Shown here piece by piece: positions 3,162 through 57,637 of a stretch of DNA of 64,000 nt. How positions within the stretch are numbered: position 1 is the first letter of the stretch; each line of letters opens with the position of its first letter. The notes below the pieces were generated by a model. It was not told the origin of the DNA. It was given only the letters and a program-made list of their open reading frames with translations, and ran no database searches. This DNA is from Pycnococcus provasolii (taxonomy: Eukaryota; Chlorophyta; Pseudoscourfieldiophyceae; Pseudoscourfieldiales; Pycnococcaceae). The translations under genes and the position numbers were made by a program. Where the stretch lies: NCBI GenBank assembly GCA_938743325.2, contig OW568896.1, positions 62,001-126,000 on the forward strand, given 5' to 3'.

Positions 3162-5258
3162 ATGGCGTATTCATCGTCGTCGTCATCATCATCAGGAGTC
3201 GTCGTGCGCACTTCTCATTCTCATTCTCGTTCTCGTTCTTATTTTCAGCATGATTCATCGAGGAGGCGATGTACACCACCACCATTCTCATTCTATTTGG
3301 TGTCTGCTATCCACTCAACATCACGATCACGCAAGCAGCTTGCAGCTTGCTCGTCGCATGACGACGGCTTCAAGGAGGGTTTACCAAGACACGACTCCAT
3401 ATTCACGAGAAGAAGAGACTTGTCTCAAGGCTCAAGGCTTGGTGCAAGCTCGCGTTGGTTAAATATACCTCATAGTTCTGCTGGCAGAGGACGACGACGT
3501 CGTCTCAGAGGCGCTTCACACGCAACCACGTCGTCATCAACGTCACCACCATCCCCATCATCCCTTGCGAAGTCCACGTACCTCGTCGCCGTGTTTGCCG
3601 CACTCGCCAAGTTCGTTGCCGTGTTCAGAGAAGTTTTAATTGCGTTCGCGTTCGGAGTCGGGCCCATCGCAGACGCGTTCGGATACGCGTCGATGATGCC
3701 AAGCTTCTTCGTCGCCGTGCTTGGTGGAATCAACGGACCGCTGCACTCCGCCGTCGCGGGACAGCTCAGCCGTGCCAAAAAACATCAAGAAGAAGAAGAA
3801 GAAGAAGAAGAAGTTCCCGCCAGCGACGTCGTCGCTTCCGCGTCAGCCGCAAGCCTGCTTCTCACCGCACCCGTCGCCGTGCTCACGTTTGCATTCGCAC
3901 CGCAGATCTTCGACGCGCTTGCTCCAGGGCTTGCCGCCTCGGCGACCGCGGACGCTCAGCTCGCTCGATCCGCAGGTGCCACGATGCTAAGGGTCATGTC
4001 GCCCACCGTGCTGCTGTGCGGCCCTCTCGGCGTGTGCTTCGGCGCACTGTCGGCAAACGGGGAATTTCGGCTGCCCGCGGCAAGTCCCGCCTTGTCGAGC
4101 GCGGCTATCATCGTCGCCGTCGCAGCGTACGTGCTCGGACCAACGCAGGGCAATGCACCCATGGCTGGCGCTCTCGCTCTTGCCATCGGAACCACCGCAG
4201 GATGCCTCGTGCAAGTGCTGGCGCAGGCGGCGCGCACAGCCCAGCTTGGCCTTGGCGAGGTGTGGAATCCGCAGTTTGGCGTTGCACTCGCGGCGGTGCG
4301 ATGCGAGGTGAGCCGAGTCGTATTCGGCGCGATGTCGTCGACGACAGCCGCCGTGCGCAGTTGCGCGAGCGTCGTTCGCGTCCTCCTTCCCGCGACGATC
4401 GCGACGGGGTCGGTGCAGATCAACGCCGTCGTTGACCTGTACTTCGCCAGCTCGCTCGGACCTGGCGCTGCCGCAGGCCTTGGGTACGCGGCACTGCTTT
4501 CCTCCGCCCCGCTCGGGATCCTCTCCAGCGCCCTTCTCGTGCCTCTGCTGCCCATGCTCGCGAGGCAGGCGAACGACAGCGAGGCGTTCGCGTCGGCGGT
4601 GCGCGGCGCTCTGCTCGCGGGCATGGTCGCCGCCTGCTTCGTCGCGAGCGTGGTTGGCCCACTCGCACCGAACGCCGCGCGCGTCGTCCTTCAGCGCGGC
4701 GCGTTCGACGCCGCGGCGACGGCTTACGTCGCGCCTCTCGTCGCGGGGTACGCCGCCGGCGCGGTGGCGGGCGTGTGGCGCGACATTCTCGTGAGGGCGT
4801 TCTACGCGCTTGGCGAGGGTGGCATTCCCTTCCGGGCGGCGTTCGCGTGTGCGTTGTTGAACGCCGTTCTCGACTGGGCTTGCGTGAACATCCTGAACTT
4901 GGGTGCAGGCGGCCTCGTCGTGGCGACGGCTCTCGCAAACGCGTGCGGCGCCGTCTGGCTGCTGTTTGCCCTTCATCGCAGGGTGGGTGGGTGCCGGTAC
5001 GGCAGCTTGGTTGGTGACGTCTTGCGTGTTCTTGCGTACGGCGCGGTGACAGCCGTGGTGGCACGTACGCTGGGGCAAGGTTTGCCCGCGCTGTTTCTGT
5101 CTTCTGAGAGTACCACCACAGGACCACTGTGGAGCTGGTTCGTTCACCTGTGCTGCGCGTTTGTGAGCTTCCTGTGCGCGAGCGCGTGCTTTTATGGGCT
5201 GTGCCTTAAGGGTGGCGTGCTTGCTGCTATTCACCAACTTGAATCTGTAGAGAAGTAA
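3162..5258 (+). CDS. MurJ/MviN-family lipid II flippase-like protein, plastid leader
   Basis: A protein of 698 residues. The first ~130 are Ser/Arg/His-rich and look like a chloroplast transit peptide; the rest is a polytopic MOP-superfamily membrane protein. MurJ-like landmarks are the first helix pair (VFREVLIAFAFG...ADAF with FF.AVLGG..G), the PLG.CFGAL segment, and a central block with QINAVVDLYFAS.L..G. followed by LSSAPLGIL and LLPMLAR. Bacterial MurJ flips the peptidoglycan precursor lipid II. Several streptophytes and some prasinophytes keep a plastid peptidoglycan pathway, and MurJ-like genes descend from the cyanobacterial endosymbiont. A short Glu run near residue 210 interrupts an exposed loop. 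The gene is intronless and begins at the first ATG after a T-rich leader. Substrate is inferred from family only. Confidence 0.85.
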   Translation: MAYSSSSSSSSGVVVRTSHSHSRSRSYFQHDSSRRRCTPPPFSFYLVSAIHSTSRSRKQLAACSSHDDGFKEGLPRHDSIFTRRRDLSQGSRLGASSRWLNIPHSSAGRGRRRRLRGASHATTSSSTSPPSPSSLAKSTYLVAVFAALAKFVAVFREVLIAFAFGVGPIADAFGYASMMPSFFVAVLGGINGPLHSAVAGQLSRAKKHQEEEEEEEEVPASDVVASASAASLLLTAPVAVLTFAFAPQIFDALAPGLAASATADAQLARSAGATMLRVMSPTVLLCGPLGVCFGALSANGEFRLPAASPALSSAAIIVAVAAYVLGPTQGNAPMAGALALAIGTTAGCLVQVLAQAARTAQLGLGEVWNPQFGVALAAVRCEVSRVVFGAMSSTTAAVRSCASVVRVLLPATIATGSVQINAVVDLYFASSLGPGAAAGLGYAALLSSAPLGILSSALLVPLLPMLARQANDSEAFASAVRGALLAGMVAACFVASVVGPLAPNAARVVLQRGAFDAAATAYVAPLVAGYAAGAVAGVWRDILVRAFYALGEGGIPFRAAFACALLNAVLDWACVNILNLGAGGLVVATALANACGAVWLLFALHRRVGGCRYGSLVGDVLRVLAYGAVTAVVARTLGQGLPALFLSSESTTTGPLWSWFVHLCCAFVSFLCASACFYGLCLKGGVLAAIHQLESVEK

Positions 5259-30538: not shown

Positions 30539-30667
30539 GGCGGGCAGCCGTCAGCTCACGTGTTCGCGCGTGAACTGACAGGCTGGAGAGGTTATCGGGT
30601 TTTTGAGCAGGCTTTGGGTTTGGCTGAGGGACACTCTCCTCCACACCGTCTAGGAGAGCAAGAAAAG
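30539..30667 (+). repeat. 129-bp direct repeat, copy 1
   Basis: Identical by eye to 31000-31128. Near its 5' end the unit holds an imperfect inverted repeat (GTCAGCTCACG against CGTGAACTGAC, one mismatch), which could form a hairpin. The 332 bp between the copies carries no recognisable protein. Two identical ends around a short core resemble a small composite element or a recent duplication. Confidence 0.9.
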
Positions 30668-30999: not shown

Positions 31000-31128
31000 G
31001 GCGGGCAGCCGTCAGCTCACGTGTTCGCGCGTGAACTGACAGGCTGGAGAGGTTATCGGGTTTTTGAGCAGGCTTTGGGTTTGGCTGAGGGACACTCTCC
31101 TCCACACCGTCTAGGAGAGCAAGAAAAG
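31000..31128 (+). repeat. 129-bp direct repeat, copy 2
   Basis: Exact copy of 30539-30667 in the same orientation, 461 bp downstream. It ends 128 bp before the start of the Mpv17-like gene and may contribute to its promoter. Confidence 0.9.
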
Positions 31129-31255: not shown

Positions 31256-32175
31256 ATGGCGGTCTCGAGTGCCAGGGTTAGTCTTTATTGTGTGCCGTTA
31301 AGCCGTGTTGTCGTGAGTAGTCGTTTAAGTTTAAGTTGTGGGTTGGCTAGGGTTGGCCGTTGTATCCATGGGTGTCGTCGTGTAAGGGTATATCAAACTC
31401 GTGGATTCAGACAACTTGAACGAAACCCTCGTACAGCATCCTGGGTTGGTGATGGTCACAAGAACTTGGGGAGGAGGAGCACGCCACGCAATTTTACCAC
31501 GCAAGCGCTGCTCGTACCGCAAGACGCTGACGTGACGTTGGCGCTCACAGACGGTTTCATCTCAGCAAGTCTATCTCTAACCATCCGTGGTGGATAAACA
31601 ACGTTCATTTTCACTGACAACCTAACACACACTAAATAAAACAGGTCGCTGGATATGCAGTCAGCGATGCCATCGCGCAGGCGACGGAGTCGAGGGCCGC
31701 AGCCGTGTCGGAGGCACAGCTCGAGCGAGGACGCCTCCTGCGGTACTGCTACTTTGGATTTGCGGATGGCGTCGCGTCACACTTTTTCTTCCACTGGCTC
31801 GATACCGCAGCCACGCAGCTGGTTGGTGGTGGTCCTGACGACGGGAACCTATTCGCGTACACCGCCACAAGTCTCGTGCTCGACTTCACGCTCTTCACGC
31901 CGTTCTGGTGCCTTGCGTTCGTCGTGTACATGGCCGCTGCTCGCGGCGAGTCGCAGCCTTTGGTGCGCGCGCGCGAGCGTTGGTTTCCGCTGTACGTGAG
32001 CAATGTCTGCGCGTGGCTCCCGTTCAACGCCGTCATTTACGGGTTCGCACCGATCGACTTGCGCGTGACTGCCTTAACATTTTGCACGGTTGTGTACACG
32101 GCGTATCTGAGCTTCTTCAGCGAGCGCGAGGCCACCATGAAGAACACCATGAAGGCGAAGAGCACGAAGCTTTGA
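31256..32175 (+). CDS. Mpv17/PMP22-family membrane protein, two exons
   Basis: Exons 31256-31564 and 31645-32175 join in phase 0 to give 279 residues. Exon 1 encodes a basic Ser/Arg-rich leader (organelle targeting) and the start of the first helix, ending LTDGFIS. Exon 2 resumes VAGYAVSDAIAQ, restoring the family motif of first helix plus D.IAQ. Then come RLLRYCYFGFADGVASHFFFHWLD, DFTLFTPFWCLAFVVY and the family end PFNAVIYGFAPIDLRV....VVYTAYLSFFSERE, matching the Mpv17/PMP22 signature. These are small four-helix channels of mitochondria, peroxisomes or plastids. The leader points to an organelle. The splice junction is supported because it rebuilds a continuous family segment. Confidence 0.85.
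31565..31644 (+). other. GC-AG intron of the Mpv17-like gene (introner-like)
   Basis: 80 bp, beginning GCAAGT and ending ACAG. It aligns along its length with the intron at 43805-43889: shared GCA.GTCT, ATCTCTAACCA.CCGT, a GG.GGAT core, CTAACACAC and AAACAG. Such similarity between introns of unrelated genes is the mark of introner elements. The frame is closed inside the intron. Confidence 0.8.
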
Positions 32176-41952: not shown

Positions 41953-44137
41953 ATGTCATTTTCAAAAAGTGTCATGGACGACAATAACCATCGTGCTCAT
42001 AATAACGGTCTCTCTCCACAGGGTCATGAGCCTGTCTCCGGCTTACCACTAGATGTTTCTTTCTTAGCAGCATCTGCATCAGCACCTGCTGTCAATACTG
42101 CGTCTCGTCGTATTCTTGTGCCTTTGGATTTGGATTTGGATTTAGATTTACATGATAATTTCGTCGTCGCCTTAAATGTAAATGCGACACTAGTGGATGC
42201 CGATGTTAATTCCAGGGGGATACCTTTACCAGAGACAGACTTGGAGGCCTTGGAGTCGGACATACTCGGTGAGGACCTCGACCTCGACCTCGACCTCGAT
42301 ATCGATATCGACGCTAGGCAGATTCACCACGCAGCAACTATCGCAGCCGCAGCTGCCGTCGCCGCGCAGGAGGTGAACCAAGGCGATGTGCAGCAGGCGG
42401 CGGCTGTCGCAGCCGCAGCTGCCGTCGCCGCGCAGGAGGCGAACCAAGGCGATGTGCAGCAGGCGGCAACTATCGCAGCCGCGGCTGCCGTCGCCGCGCA
42501 GGAGGTGAACCAAGGCGATGTGCAGCAGGCGGCAGCTGTCGCAGCCGCAGCTGCCGTCGCCGCGCAGGAGGTGAACCAAGGCGATGTGCAGCAGGCGGCG
42601 GCTGTCGCAGCCGCAGCCGCCGTCGCCGCGCAGCAGGTGACCAATCAAGGCGATGTGCAGCAAGCAGCGGCTGTCATAGCCGCAGCTGCCGTCGCCGCGC
42701 AGGAGGCGAGCAAAGGCGATGTGCAGCAGGCGGCGGCTGTCGCAGCCGCGGCTGCCGTCGCCGCGCAGGAGGCGAGCCAAGGCGATGTGCAGCAGGCGGC
42801 GGCTGTCGCAGCCGCAGCTGCCGTCGCCGCGCAGGAGGTGACTGCCGCTCCGGCGCCGCAAATACAGGAGGCGGCAACTATCGCAGCCGCAGCCGCCATC
42901 GCTGCGCAGCAGGTGACCAATCAAGGCGATGTGCAGCAAGCAGCGGCTGTCGTAGCAGCCGCAGCTGCAACATCTGCTATCGCTATGCAAGACCCATCAA
43001 CGCCGGAGTACCTCAACGTGCTCACAGCTTTCCTGAGAAGGATGAACCCGGGCGAGTTTGGAGGCGATGTTCGCAAAAGAAATACCGCAGAGCAGGAGGC
43101 GGCGTTGCTTGCAGCTGCCACGGCACTGCAGGCGGCGGCAATCGCAACCGCATCACATACGGTGGACGGACTCCTACCAGCCATTGACGACGTCACGCTG
43201 CTTGCCGAAACCGATCCGCGCAACGTCTGGGCGCTCGCGGCGCGGATGCGCGCGAAGGAGCGTGTCGTGAACATGCCAATGATCAAGCTTGCGTTTACCG
43301 TCGCGCAGGAGAGCGATCGAATGGCGGACGCTAAGTACGACTCAAACTTCGAGGAGGGTGGGCTCGTGGATGGCCACGCGACGGGGTTGACTACTTGGGA
43401 CGCCGGAGTCGTTCTCGCCGATCTTCTCACCCATCCGCCGAGCGTGCTCTGCGCGCAGCACCCGAGGCTCGCTCGCAGCGAACACGGGAGGAATTGGAGC
43501 TGGAAGGGCAAGAAGGTGGTAGAGCTCGGCGCAGGCGCGAGTGCCATTCCGAGTTGCATAGCCGCATTGCTCGGTGCCTCGCACGTTTTCGCCACTGACG
43601 GTGATGGGAGCGTGTTTCCCGCGCTACGCGAAAATATTGCCAAGTTTCATGCCGCAAATAGCCTTGACAGTCGCGTGCCACCGCCGACCCTCGCTGCAAA
43701 ATTCCTGCGCTGGGGCGAGAACGGGGAGGCGGAAGTGGTGGGAGACGACGGTGTCGCCGACGTCGTGTTGGCGGCTGATGTCCTATATATCCTCGAAAAT
43801 CCAGGCATGTCTTACATCTCTAACCAACCGTCATGGCGGATGGATAATCAACAATGCACTAACAATTTCTAACACACGAATACAAACAGGTGCGTGGGGC
43901 AATCTGCTTAAAACGATCGAAGCTCTGTCAGGCCCGCACACACTCAACTTCTTGACGTACACCGATAGAGGCCACCATAAGTTATTCACGAAGTACCTCG
44001 ATCGCATCAAACGCGCATTTCACGTTGTGGAAGTGGCTCCGCACCTTCTGCATCCGCAGTACAAGACAGGATGCCCCGGTCGCCTTGAGCATCACGTTGG
44101 CGACGTTCGTATCTTCAGCCTTGCGAAGAAATTGTAA
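41953..44137 (+). CDS. METTL21/FAM86-like lysine methyltransferase with long Ala-rich repeats, two exons
   Basis: Exons 41953-43804 and 43890-44137 join in phase 1 to give 699 residues. The N-terminal part has an acidic DLDLDLD repeat (twice) and then ~9 copies of a 22-residue unit (VNQGDVQQAAAVAAAAAVAA), coded by a 66-bp DNA repeat. The methyltransferase starts near residue 470: TTWDAGVVLADLL, motif I KVVELGAGASAIPSCIAALLG, acidic residue in ATDGDGS, VVLAADVLYILENPG|AWGNLLKTIEAL across the splice site, and the family end HPQY....RIFSLAKK. The splice rebuilds the DVLY..E segment exactly. The family methylates Lys of chaperones or eEF2-type proteins; the target is unknown. The repeat likely varies between strains. 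Confidence 0.85.
42340..42975 (+). repeat. 66-bp coding minisatellite
   Basis: About nine units of 66 bp in the methyltransferase frame, with the constant core GCAGCCGC and GGCGATGTGCAGCA. Units differ at a few positions, so they are not freshly made. The opposite strand also has a long open frame over the same region. Confidence 0.9.
43805..43889 (+). other. GC-AG intron of the methyltransferase gene (introner-like)
   Basis: 85 bp, starting GCATGT and ending ACAG, with exon 1 ending CCAG. It is the closest relative in the window of the intron at 31565-31644. Confidence 0.8.
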
Positions 44138-55583: not shown

Positions 55584-55741
55584 GTTTTGTTTTATCTGTT
55601 GTTGATTTCACGTTCCCGTGCCGCCTGCGCCCTGCGATGCGATAGAAGTTGTTCTCCGCTCGGCCCCTCCCCTGGCCCTCCCCCTCTCGGCCAGTCGGCC
55701 TCTGCTACGCCTTTTCCCTTCCCATTTTCTTCTTCACTCAG

Positions 55742-57016
55742 CCAGCACCGGCTGCACCATCACCATCGCCGCACGCGTCCGAACCGACGCAGATGCAGCT
55801 TACTGAGGAACCGAAGCCGCTGCCGTCGCCTGCACGTCACGACGACTTCGTCGCGTCTCCCGCCGCAGCGCCAGCACCGGCTGCACCATCACCATCGCCG
55901 CACGCGTCCGAACCGACGCAGATGCAGCTTCCTGAGGAACCGAAGCCGCTGCCGTCGCCTGCACGTCACGACGACTTCGTCGCGTCTCCCGCCGCAGCGC
56001 CAGCACCGGCTGCACCATCACCATCGCCGCACGCGTCCGAACCGACGCAGATGCAGCTTCCTGAGGAACCGAAGCCGCTGCCGTCGCCTGCACGTCACGA
56101 CGACTTCGTCGCGTCTCCCGCCGCAGCGCCAGCACCGGCTGCACCATCACCATCGCCGCACGCGTCCGGACCGACGCAGATGCAGCTTCCTGAGGAACCG
56201 AAGCCGCTGCCGTCGCCTGCACGTCACGACGACTTCGTCGCGTCTCCCGCCGCAGCGCCAGCACCGGCTGCACCATCACCATCGCCGCACGCGTCCGAAC
56301 CGACGCAGATGCAGCTTCCTGAGGAACCGAAGCCGCTGCCGTCGCCTGCACGTCACGACGACTTCGTCGCGTCTCCCGCCGCAGCGCCAGCACCGGCTGC
56401 ACCATCACCATCGCCGCACGCGTCCGAACCGACGCAGATGCAGCTTCCTGAGGAACCGAAGCCGCTGCCGTCGCCTGCACGTCACGACGACTTCGTCGCG
56501 TCTCCCGCCGCAGCGCCAGCACCGGCTGCACCATCACCATCGCCGCACGCGTCCGAACCGACGCAGATGCAGCTTCCTGAGGAACCGAAGCCGCTGCCGT
56601 CGCCTGCACGTCACGACGACTTCGTCGTGTCTCCCGCCGCAGCGCCAGCACCGGCTGCACCATCACCATCGCCGCACGCGTCCGAACCGACGCAGATGCA
56701 GCTTCCTGAGGAACCGAAGCCGCTGCCGTCGCCTGCACGTCACGACGACTTCGTCGCGTCTCCCGCCGCAGCGCCAGCACCGGCTGCACCATCACCATCG
56801 CCGCACGCGTCCGAACCGACGCAGATGCAGCTTACTGAGGAACCGAAGCCGCTGCCGTCGCCTGCACGTCACGACGACTTCGTCGCGTCTCCCGCCGCAG
56901 CGCCAGCACCGGCTGCACCATCACCATCGCCGCACGCGTCCGAACCTCAGCAGGGTGCACGTTACTGTTGTAGTGTTAAGTTTAAGTGTAATAAGACTGT
57001 ATTGATTTTCTTGTAA
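55742..57016 (+). CDS. Pro/Ser-rich repeat protein (129-bp coding minisatellite), 5' end unknown
   Basis: Nine near-identical copies of a 129-bp unit (43 residues) plus a partial one. In the most protein-like frame each unit reads PSPSPHASEPTQMQLPEEPKPLPSPARHDDFVASPAAAPAPAA, split here as PSPSPHASEPTQMQLPEEPK then PLPSPARHDDFVASPAAAPA. It ends with RYCCSVKFKCNKTVLIFL and a stop at 57016. The first and last copies have LTEE where inner copies have LPEE, which argues for homogenisation of the middle. No ATG precedes the array in this frame; a pyrimidine-rich tract ending CAG at 55739-55741 looks like a splice acceptor, so the array may start an internal exon. Function unknown; an extracellular Pro-rich protein is possible. 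Other frames and the minus strand are also open. Confidence 0.5.
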   Translation, partial: PAPAAPSPSPHASEPTQMQLTEEPKPLPSPARHDDFVASPAAAPAPAAPSPSPHASEPTQMQLPEEPKPLPSPARHDDFVASPAAAPAPAAPSPSPHASEPTQMQLPEEPKPLPSPARHDDFVASPAAAPAPAAPSPSPHASGPTQMQLPEEPKPLPSPARHDDFVASPAAAPAPAAPSPSPHASEPTQMQLPEEPKPLPSPARHDDFVASPAAAPAPAAPSPSPHASEPTQMQLPEEPKPLPSPARHDDFVASPAAAPAPAAPSPSPHASEPTQMQLPEEPKPLPSPARHDDFVVSPAAAPAPAAPSPSPHASEPTQMQLPEEPKPLPSPARHDDFVASPAAAPAPAAPSPSPHASEPTQMQLTEEPKPLPSPARHDDFVASPAAAPAPAAPSPSPHASEPQQGARYCCSVKFKCNKTVLIFL

Positions 57017-57061
57017 CAATCTGAACATTCCCCTTCACTTCACTCCCGTCCTTAAAAGTTG

Positions 57062-57637
57062 TTAATCAACTACCACGACACGCGTAGCCTCCGCCTTCGT
57101 CTGGGCGACGCGCGTCCTCCCAGCCCACATCCAGAGCTGGTCCTTGAGGTCGCCCAGCGTGTAGGCCGCGCTGCCGAGCTGCTCGACGATGTCCTGGCGC
57201 AGGTCCTTGAGCGCGCGCGTCTTGCGACGCTGAAACTCCAGCTGCAAGATACCCGCGGTATCCGTCCACTCGAGGACTGCCATCAGCTTGGTGACCGCGA
57301 TCTGCACCCTGCTGTACGCGACCGGGAAGCTGCGCGAAGCGTCCTGCTGCAGCTCGTGAAACACTGCCAGTTCGCGGTTGCTGCGGGCCAGAGCCTTCTC
57401 CGTCGTCTGCAGCTGCTGCTGGAGCTGCGCGTTCTTGTTGCTGAGAGCTGCGAGCTGCTGCTGCCCCTCCGCGTTCGCCTTCAGCAAGACCGTGCAGTCG
57501 CCCTCCAAGGCCTTTGCCTTGTCCTCCAGGGCCTTTGCCTTATGCTGCGCGAACATGACTGCGACGTTCTGCGACTTAAGGAACTCGTCGCGGTTCAGGT
57601 CGTTGTTGGCGCACGAGAGGACAGTGAGGTCGGACAT
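57062..57637 (-). CDS. coiled-coil protein of unknown function
   Basis: A protein of 191 residues. Residues ~30-95 form a long coiled coil with heptad-like Leu/Ala spacing (KALEDKAKALEGDCTVLLKA and ALSNKNAQLQQQLQTTEKAL). A second helical part (residues 100-175) includes SRVQIAVTKLMAVLEWTDTAG and a basic helix before DIVEQLGSAAYTLGDLKDQLW. Codon use and length of the frame support coding. No family is recognised. The gene is convergent with the repeat gene, 45 bp from its stop, and lies between it and a LINE tail. Single exon; the start is the first ATG of the frame. Confidence 0.6.
   Translation of the reverse strand: MSDLTVLSCANNDLNRDEFLKSQNVAVMFAQHKAKALEDKAKALEGDCTVLLKANAEGQQQLAALSNKNAQLQQQLQTTEKALARSNRELAVFHELQQDASRSFPVAYSRVQIAVTKLMAVLEWTDTAGILQLEFQRRKTRALKDLRQDIVEQLGSAAYTLGDLKDQLWMWAGRTRVAQTKAEATRVVVVD

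What the first reader, a model, noticed from the sequence alone, without database searches (positions are those of the whole stretch)
31565..31644. Introner-like intron with GC-AG ends, sister of the one at 43805-43889
Two introns in unrelated genes (Mpv17-like and a lysine methyltransferase) share GCA.GTCT, ATCTCTAACCA.CCGT, a GG.GGAT core, CTAACACAC and AAACAG. Each join is in phase and rebuilds a conserved protein segment. Homologous introns in different genes are the hallmark of introners, known from Micromonas. Both copies here use a GC donor, which would be an unusual family-wide splice signal.
Basis: partly seen in the sequence, partly recalled or inferred. Interest (0 to 1): 0.85.

Follow-up and report, generated by a model that had tools for sequence, protein, structure and literature searches.

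The report
Introner family in unnamed alga
The two short introns belong to a family of near-copies scattered through more than a hundred places of this organism's genome, so they are very probably real 'introners', but the unusual GC splice start is an exception seen in just these two aligned copies and not the family's rule.

Summary
The observation mostly holds. The introns at 31565-31644 (Mpv17-like gene) and 43805-43889 (lysine methyltransferase) are homologous members of a dispersed family in the window's 32.3 Mb genome: 121 distinct places from seven searches, 82 hit by two or more probes. Sixty-five copies were aligned; the consensus is about 73 nt, GTAAGTCTACCTCTAACCATCC..GCGGATAAACA..CACTAACAACCTAACACACTAAATAAAACAG. 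Removing them leaves a long open frame on both sides in 50 of 63 copies; left in, 0 of 63. Copies up to 98.6% identical sit in unrelated genes. This is an introner family.

The family-wide GC donor is wrong: 63 of 65 aligned copies start GT, only the two window copies GC; a donor-neutral pattern gave 87 GT, 1 GC and 1 out-of-register start among its 89 best hits. The two are only 63.6% identical. High GC-donor rates are already published for Micromonas introners.

No target-site duplication, AG|G preference, phase bias or conserved fold was found; no terminal inverted repeat was seen by eye. Junctions prefer C/G|A/G. Splicing is inferred (no RNA data), and copy 1's GC donor is not the only frame-keeping choice.

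The parts
31256..31564 (+). Mpv17-like gene, exon 1 (103 codons from the only ATG of the open frame)
   Evidence: open frame ending in phase 0 at the donor
31565..31644 (+). introner copy 1, GC-AG, 80 nt, donor TCA|GCAAGT
   Evidence: family match E 1.1e-15 with a profile that excludes it. Donor set by family alignment; other frame-keeping pairs exist
31622..31626 (+). CTAAC, likely branch-point motif of copy 1
   Evidence: sequence, conserved in the family; branch-point role inferred
31645..32175 (+). Mpv17-like gene, exon 2 with Mpv17_PMP22 domain
   Evidence: PF04117 7.1e-10 on the spliced protein, residues 206-259
41953..43804 (+). lysine methyltransferase gene, exon 1 (start codon uncertain)
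   Evidence: open frame in phase 1; PF10294
43805..43889 (+). introner copy 2, GC-AG, 85 nt, donor CAG|GCATGT
   Evidence: family match E 3.6e-7 with a profile that excludes it; only frame-keeping GT/GC-AG pair in the range tried; variant and relatives
43869..43873 (+). CTAAC, likely branch-point motif of copy 2
   Evidence: sequence, conserved in the family; branch-point role inferred
43890..44137 (+). lysine methyltransferase gene, exon 2
   Evidence: rebuilds NP-GAWG...LL.T, continuous in the proteins of relatives

Best explanation
The two introns are members of one introner family: a short (about 73 nt) multicopy element that carries its own 5' splice site, CTAAC branch-point motif(s) and 3' splice site, has inserted into coding sequence at many places in this genome, and is removed exactly by the spliceosome, as a rule as a GT-AG intron. 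The two window copies are aged members whose donor GT has become GC (one point change, tolerated because the rest of the donor, GCAAGT or AG|GCATGT, can still pair with U1). Shown here: homology, dispersal, unrelated flanks, frame-restoring joins. Inferred: that the RNA is spliced in the cell, that the copies arose by transposition, that the sites are new, and that GC is the derived state.
For: Dispersed copies: (union 121 places, 82 seen by two or more probes); reversed-pattern controls 0 against 52 hits for the core and 0 against 49 for the 3' end. Joins: spliced sense frame of at least 450 nt with at least 90 nt on both sides in 50 of 63 copies, against 0 of 63 unspliced, 27 and 29 of 63 with the donor moved by 1 or 2 nt, 12 of 63 antisense, and 40% of random single-strand positions in the same loci. 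In 7 of 8 spliced proteins tried the join falls inside a Pfam domain match, e.g. RNA polymerase GDKFS|SRHGQKG, kinesin GKTHTMF|GPPG, ABC ATPase GAN|GAGKST. The 8 methyltransferase relatives P0122-P0129 are continuous through the join. Copies 98.6% (L077 in a kinesin, L078 in another gene) and 95.9% identical (L035/L044 and others) lie in unrelated genes. GC is the exception: 2 of 65; 1 of 89. P0121, a near-identical protein of the same gene that reads into the intron, implies codons GGN AAR at the donor, the consensus AAG, where the window has GCATG (inferred from protein).
Against: No RNA data. Absence in relatives is known only from proteins of one locus; some sources may be transcripts or spliced gene models (P0127 is from an annotated set), the best genomic case being P0129 from a 110 kb contig. 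P0130 breaks off before the join, P0131 is distant, and P0132-P0135 were not aligned. The Mpv17 search found one distant relative that tells nothing. For copy 1 other frame-keeping splice pairs exist, 5 with GT. 13 of 63 copies failed the strict frame test: 9 have a long frame with one short side, 4 (L013, L022, and one copy each in L088 and L094) only short frames. The donor-calling script allowed only GT or GC starts, and L076 fits poorly. Copies were found by likeness to splice-bearing probes, so decayed copies would be missed.
Confidence: 0.88

Rival explanations
1. RNA route: copies spread by reverse splicing of the excised intron into another transcript, reverse transcription and recombination into the gene.
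For: No TSD signal in 63 copies (best z 2.9 of 672 position pairs) and no terminal inverted repeat by eye; both splice sites inside the element; sense orientation in coding frames; no phase preference, 17/14/19 for phases 0/1/2 in 50 copies.
Against: Sense bias also follows from selection against unspliced copies. The C/G|A/G junction preference is unexplained by this route. Gozashti 2022 holds DNA transposition the commoner route.
Confidence: 0.45
2. DNA route: a non-autonomous transposon (MITE-like) with very short or no TSD, moved by a transposase encoded elsewhere; splice sites evolved inside it.
For: Junction preference C/G (53 of 63, binomial p 3e-6) | A/G (49 of 63, p 4e-5) with AG|G in only 3 of 63 looks like a target choice. 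Most introner families elsewhere carry TSD or TIR (59.2% of 130 families, Gozashti 2022).
Against: No TSD found, no TIR seen by eye; no autonomous relative was looked for beyond the end-pattern searches.
Confidence: 0.4
3. Ordinary introns that look alike only because of shared splice signals, or gene conversion among old introns.
For: GTAAGT, CTAAC and AACAG are generic signals; median pair identity is only about 71%. Absence in relatives is shown for one locus and by proteins only.
Against: Likeness extends over the whole 73 nt, including the non-signal core; reversed-pattern control 0 against 52 hits; five copies 97% identical to one query.
Confidence: 0.06
4. The GC donors mark a distinct sub-family or a locally different splice rule, not independent decay.
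For: Both GC copies of 65 lie 12 kb apart (1 in 2080 by chance if unselected), and both are followed by an exon that begins GT (9 of 63 copies are).
Confidence: 0.08

Closest known systems
Micromonas pusilla CCMP1545 introner elements IE-A / D-IE1
   Same: Short multicopy spliceosomal introns, sense orientation in coding sequence, conserved donor; some copies with GC donors (53% of IE-A1, Verhelst 2013; 46% of complete D-IE1, van Baren 2016).
   Different: The printed donor motif differs (GYGCGT there, GTAAGT here); thousands of copies there, a lower bound of 121 places here; GC donors near half there, 2 of 65 here.
Micromonas RCC299 IE-C / ABC-IE
   Same: Similar length (average 67 nt) and copy number (221 in Verhelst 2013, 164 in van Baren 2016), GT donors (0% GC in van Baren 2016).
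   Different: Branch motif GACTGACG there, CTAAC here; not compared base by base.
Introner families lacking TSD and TIR (ascomycete introner-like elements; part of the families of Gozashti 2022)
   Same: Carries both splice sites; no TSD found, no TIR seen.
   Different: Verhelst 2013 says the fungal elements have a conserved secondary structure; none was found here.
GC-AG introns as a minor class of U2 introns (recalled)
   Same: The two window copies: GCAAGT and AG|GCATGT, otherwise good donors.
   Different: Exceptions within a GT family. The genome's background rate of GC donors was not measured.

Membership tests
Introner (introner element) | Group of introns alike to near both splice boundaries, in unrelated genes | tested here: met
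   65 copies aligned end to end. Flanks of different loci share only short matches, matches to further family copies, and one 74-nt repeat near L010 and L079
Introner (introner element) | Many copies across the genome | tested here: met
   121 places, 82 by two or more probes
Introner (introner element) | Insertion at new positions, absent in relatives | tested here: inconclusive
   one locus only and from proteins: P0122-P0129 (8 of the 11 aligned) are continuous through the methyltransferase join; some may derive from transcripts or spliced models
Introner (introner element) | Spliced from the mRNA | not testable with these tools
   no RNA reads; indirect: frame test 50 of 63 against 0 of 63
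Introner, DNA-transposon type | Target-site duplication | tested here: not met
   no clear excess in 672 position pairs, 63 copies; a duplication made of constant splice bases would escape this test
Introner, DNA-transposon type | Terminal inverted repeats | tested here: inconclusive
   none seen by eye in the consensus; no formal test run
Micromonas introner elements | Sequence homology to IE-A/B/C/D | not tested
   no Micromonas sequence at hand; the motifs printed in the papers differ
GC-donor introner family | GC donor throughout or at high frequency | tested here: not met
   2 of 65; 1 of 89 hits with up to 2 mismatches

The most novel reading that the evidence does not exclude
A recently active introner family, not seen in the papers searched, in an unnamed alga that inserts without detectable target-site duplication or inverted repeats, at C/G|A/G junctions and in any codon phase, and carries all of its splice signals: a candidate for intron gain through RNA (reverse splicing) outside fungi. 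Two sub-families share both ends but not the middle, as if only the splice-bearing ends were needed for spread.
Probability: 0.3. Interest if true: 0.65.

Novelty: new member of a known kind. Interest (0 to 1): 0.42.

Why it matters
Introners are a known source of rapid intron gain (Gozashti 2022). A compact family with near-identical and decayed members in one 32 Mb genome gives material to tell RNA-based from DNA-based spread, and to follow how splice signals decay (GT to GC) after insertion. The GC donor itself matters little: it is rare here and common in a published family.

Tried and rejected
Family-wide GC donor: rejected. Close sisterhood of the two window copies: rejected (my notebook entry gives rank 53, the right count is 54th of 62). 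Target-site duplication: none found. Conserved RNA structure: not supported; mean z -0.43 over 63 copies, 2 of 63 below -2, consensus fold empty. No Rfam family at gathering threshold in the window. Carriage by viruses: three exact patterns gave 0 hits in IMG/VR; that collection may leave out records near this genome. Naming the species by 18S rRNA: the Rfam search RF01960 did not complete in 12 tries. Two protein searches gave only distant named relatives: Tetradesmus and other chlorophytes and a chytrid, and a protein whose label I read, from memory, as Tetraselmis striata. Presence/absence for the Mpv17-like gene: one distant hit only. An autonomous longer element: not looked for beyond the 5'- and 3'-end patterns. 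Background rate of GC donors among other introns: not measured.

Dropped before counts: 2 of 65 copies without a called acceptor (L021, L041) are missing from the frame, TSD, site, identity and fold tests (63 used). The donor script allowed only GT or GC starts and moved the register of two copies (L067, L073). In one search, 100 of 112 hits were printed; I counted the 89 with at most 2 mismatches. The 11 printed hits with 3 mismatches include 2 GC starts with poor family fit; the reversed-pattern control at up to 3 mismatches gave 32 hits, so they were left out. In one search, 40 of 82 candidates were scored by the tool, 40 of 55. The places behind the union of 121 were typed by hand from the outputs (that script stopped with an error after printing the two counts used). 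Alignment A2 and model R1 used 56 copies including the window's, so the leave-out test is the one to cite. Of 15 proteins found, 11 were aligned.

Papers: Gozashti 2022 (PMC9860276): abstract, section 4, passages. Verhelst 2013 (PMC3879977): abstract, sections 10 (part 1), 13, 14 (part 1). van Baren 2016 (PMC4815162): passages. Amoebophrya paper (PMC7789003): passages. Others: search listings only. No supplementary file was opened. U1 pairing of GC donors and GC-AG introns as a minor class are recalled.

Full report
What is there. Copy 1 (31565-31644, 80 nt) splits an Mpv17-like gene in phase 0; copy 2 (43805-43889, 85 nt) splits a lysine methyltransferase gene in phase 1. Left in, each brings a stop into the frame. 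For copy 2 the stated GC-AG pair is the only GT/GC-AG pair in the range tried that keeps the frame to the same stop. Removing it raises the methyltransferase domain match from 41.5 to 51.3 bits and extends it to profile position 173 of 174. For copy 1 eight such pairs keep the frame, five of them with a GT donor, and the Mpv17 domain match lies wholly beyond the join; there the GC donor rests on alignment with the family.

A genome-wide family. The window lies in a genome of 32.3 Mb and 46 contigs. Copy 1 alone finds 16 further places at 77-82% identity. A consensus query finds 40 (40 of 82 candidates scored); a query for a second sub-family finds 40 (40 of 55 scored). A core pattern gives 52 hits against 0 for its reversed control, a 3'-end pattern 49 against 0. 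A 5'-end pattern at up to 3 mismatches gives 112 against 32; its 89 hits with at most 2 mismatches were used. The union, with copy 2's own search, is 121 distinct places, 82 of them met by two or more probes. A profile built without the window copies finds just the two in the window, E 1.1e-15 and 3.6e-7, and nothing better than E 1.9 in the reversed window.

Anatomy. Sixty-five distinct copies were aligned. Consensus of 63: GTAAGTCTACCTCTAACCATCCATGGCGGATAAACAAACA.TCACTAACAACCTAACACACTAAATAAAACAG. Both ends are strongly conserved. The middle has at least two forms, one with the ATCC..GGAT core and one rich in A. Two CTAAC motifs precede the acceptor; the nearer is the likely branch point (inferred). 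No conserved fold was found.

Splicing is inferred, but strongly. For 63 copies with both ends called, removing the intron leaves a sense frame of at least 450 nt with at least 90 nt on each side in 50. Leaving it in gives 0 of 63; moving the donor by 1 or 2 nt gives 27 and 29; the antisense strand gives 12; a random position on one random strand in the same loci passes in 40%. Phases are 17, 14 and 19 for 0, 1 and 2, and each of the 50 would break the frame if retained. Eight spliced proteins were scanned: all 8 have a Pfam match, and in 7 of 8 the join lies inside it (the exception is the UreG-like protein, join 10 residues past the domain match). Several joins sit in strongly conserved motifs, for example GDKFS|SRHGQKG in an RNA polymerase subunit, GKTHTMF|GPPG in a kinesin and GAN|GAGKST in an ABC ATPase.

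Is the site new? Of 11 proteins aligned with the methyltransferase, P0122 to P0129 (8) run through the join without a break. P0127 is from an annotated set, and other sources may include transcripts, so this is consistent with absence of the intron but not proof; the best genomic case is P0129, from a 110 kb contig. P0130 breaks off before the join; P0131 is distant. P0121, the same protein over the exon but for one residue, reads on into the intron and differs there at 3 of 21 residues. So the site varies within the species or its near kin, more in the intron than in the exon. Its translation implies AAG where the window copy has ATG after the first two donor bases, so the window copy has drifted from the consensus. 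Whether that variant has GT or GC cannot be read from protein.

Recent spread. L077 and L078 are 98.6% identical and lie in a kinesin and in an unrelated gene; L035/L044 are 95.9% identical and lie in unrelated genes. L006 and L007 (95.9%) are 5 kb apart on one strand and may lie in one dynein gene (by eye). Flanks of different loci share only short matches, matches to further family copies, and one 74-nt repeat near L010 and L079.

The GC donors. Of 65 aligned copies 63 start GT and 2 start GC, the two of this window (the script allowed only these two starts). The donor-neutral pattern gives 87 GT, 1 GC and 1 hit in a shifted register among 89. So GC is a rare exception. The two GC copies are 63.6% identical, and each has nearer relatives with GT. 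The simplest reading is one T-to-C change in each. That both should lie within 12 kb is odd (1 in 2080 if unselected), but the pair was picked for that very trait. Both have a following exon that begins GT, as do 9 of 63 copies; I have no explanation.

How it spreads. No target-site duplication was found, and no inverted repeat is visible at the ends. The proto-splice site AG|G is rare (3 of 63). The base before the intron is C or G in 53 of 63, the base after it A or G in 49 of 63. The element thus carries both splice sites and seems to choose sites by a loose rule. That fits either reverse splicing, or a transposase whose duplication is absent or hidden in the constant splice bases. I give the two nearly equal weight.

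What is known. Introners are an established kind (Gozashti 2022; Verhelst 2013). Families with 0 to 50% GC donors are reported (Gozashti 2022); 53% of Micromonas IE-A1 and 46% of complete D-IE1 have GC.

The organism. Named relatives are distant: chlorophytes and a chytrid for a P-type ATPase, a protein labelled Tetstr1. Several copies sit in genes that look to me like dynein heavy chains (by eye), and there is a MurJ-like gene. A flagellated green alga is likely, not shown.

Noticed in passing
window 30539-30667 and 31000-31128: Exact 129-bp direct repeat, 461 bp apart, just upstream of the Mpv17-like gene.
   Followed up: no
window 55612-57072: Tandem array of a 129-bp unit at about 99% identity, in a stretch with long frames on both strands.
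   Followed up: no
window 42211-42973: 66-bp (22-codon) repeats inside the N-terminal part of the methyltransferase frame.
   Followed up: no
window 3162-5258: MurJ-like lipid II flippase gene (PF03023) in a eukaryote, perhaps tied to plastid peptidoglycan.
   Followed up: no
L010 and L079, downstream flanks: A different 74-nt repeat, 86.5% identical, lies within 300 nt downstream of two family copies at unlike distances: perhaps another repeat or intron family.
   Followed up: no
L088:1464-1621: Two family copies separated by a 12-nt stretch, a possible micro-exon.
   Followed up: partly
L032:375-1572: Three family copies within 1.2 kb on one strand.
   Followed up: partly
G000 C24 (two), C23, C21, C16: Five copies of the A-rich sub-family, each 97% identical to one query: the youngest-looking group.
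   Followed up: partly
63 copies tested: Junction preference C/G|A/G with few AG|G sites and no target-site duplication found.
   Followed up: partly
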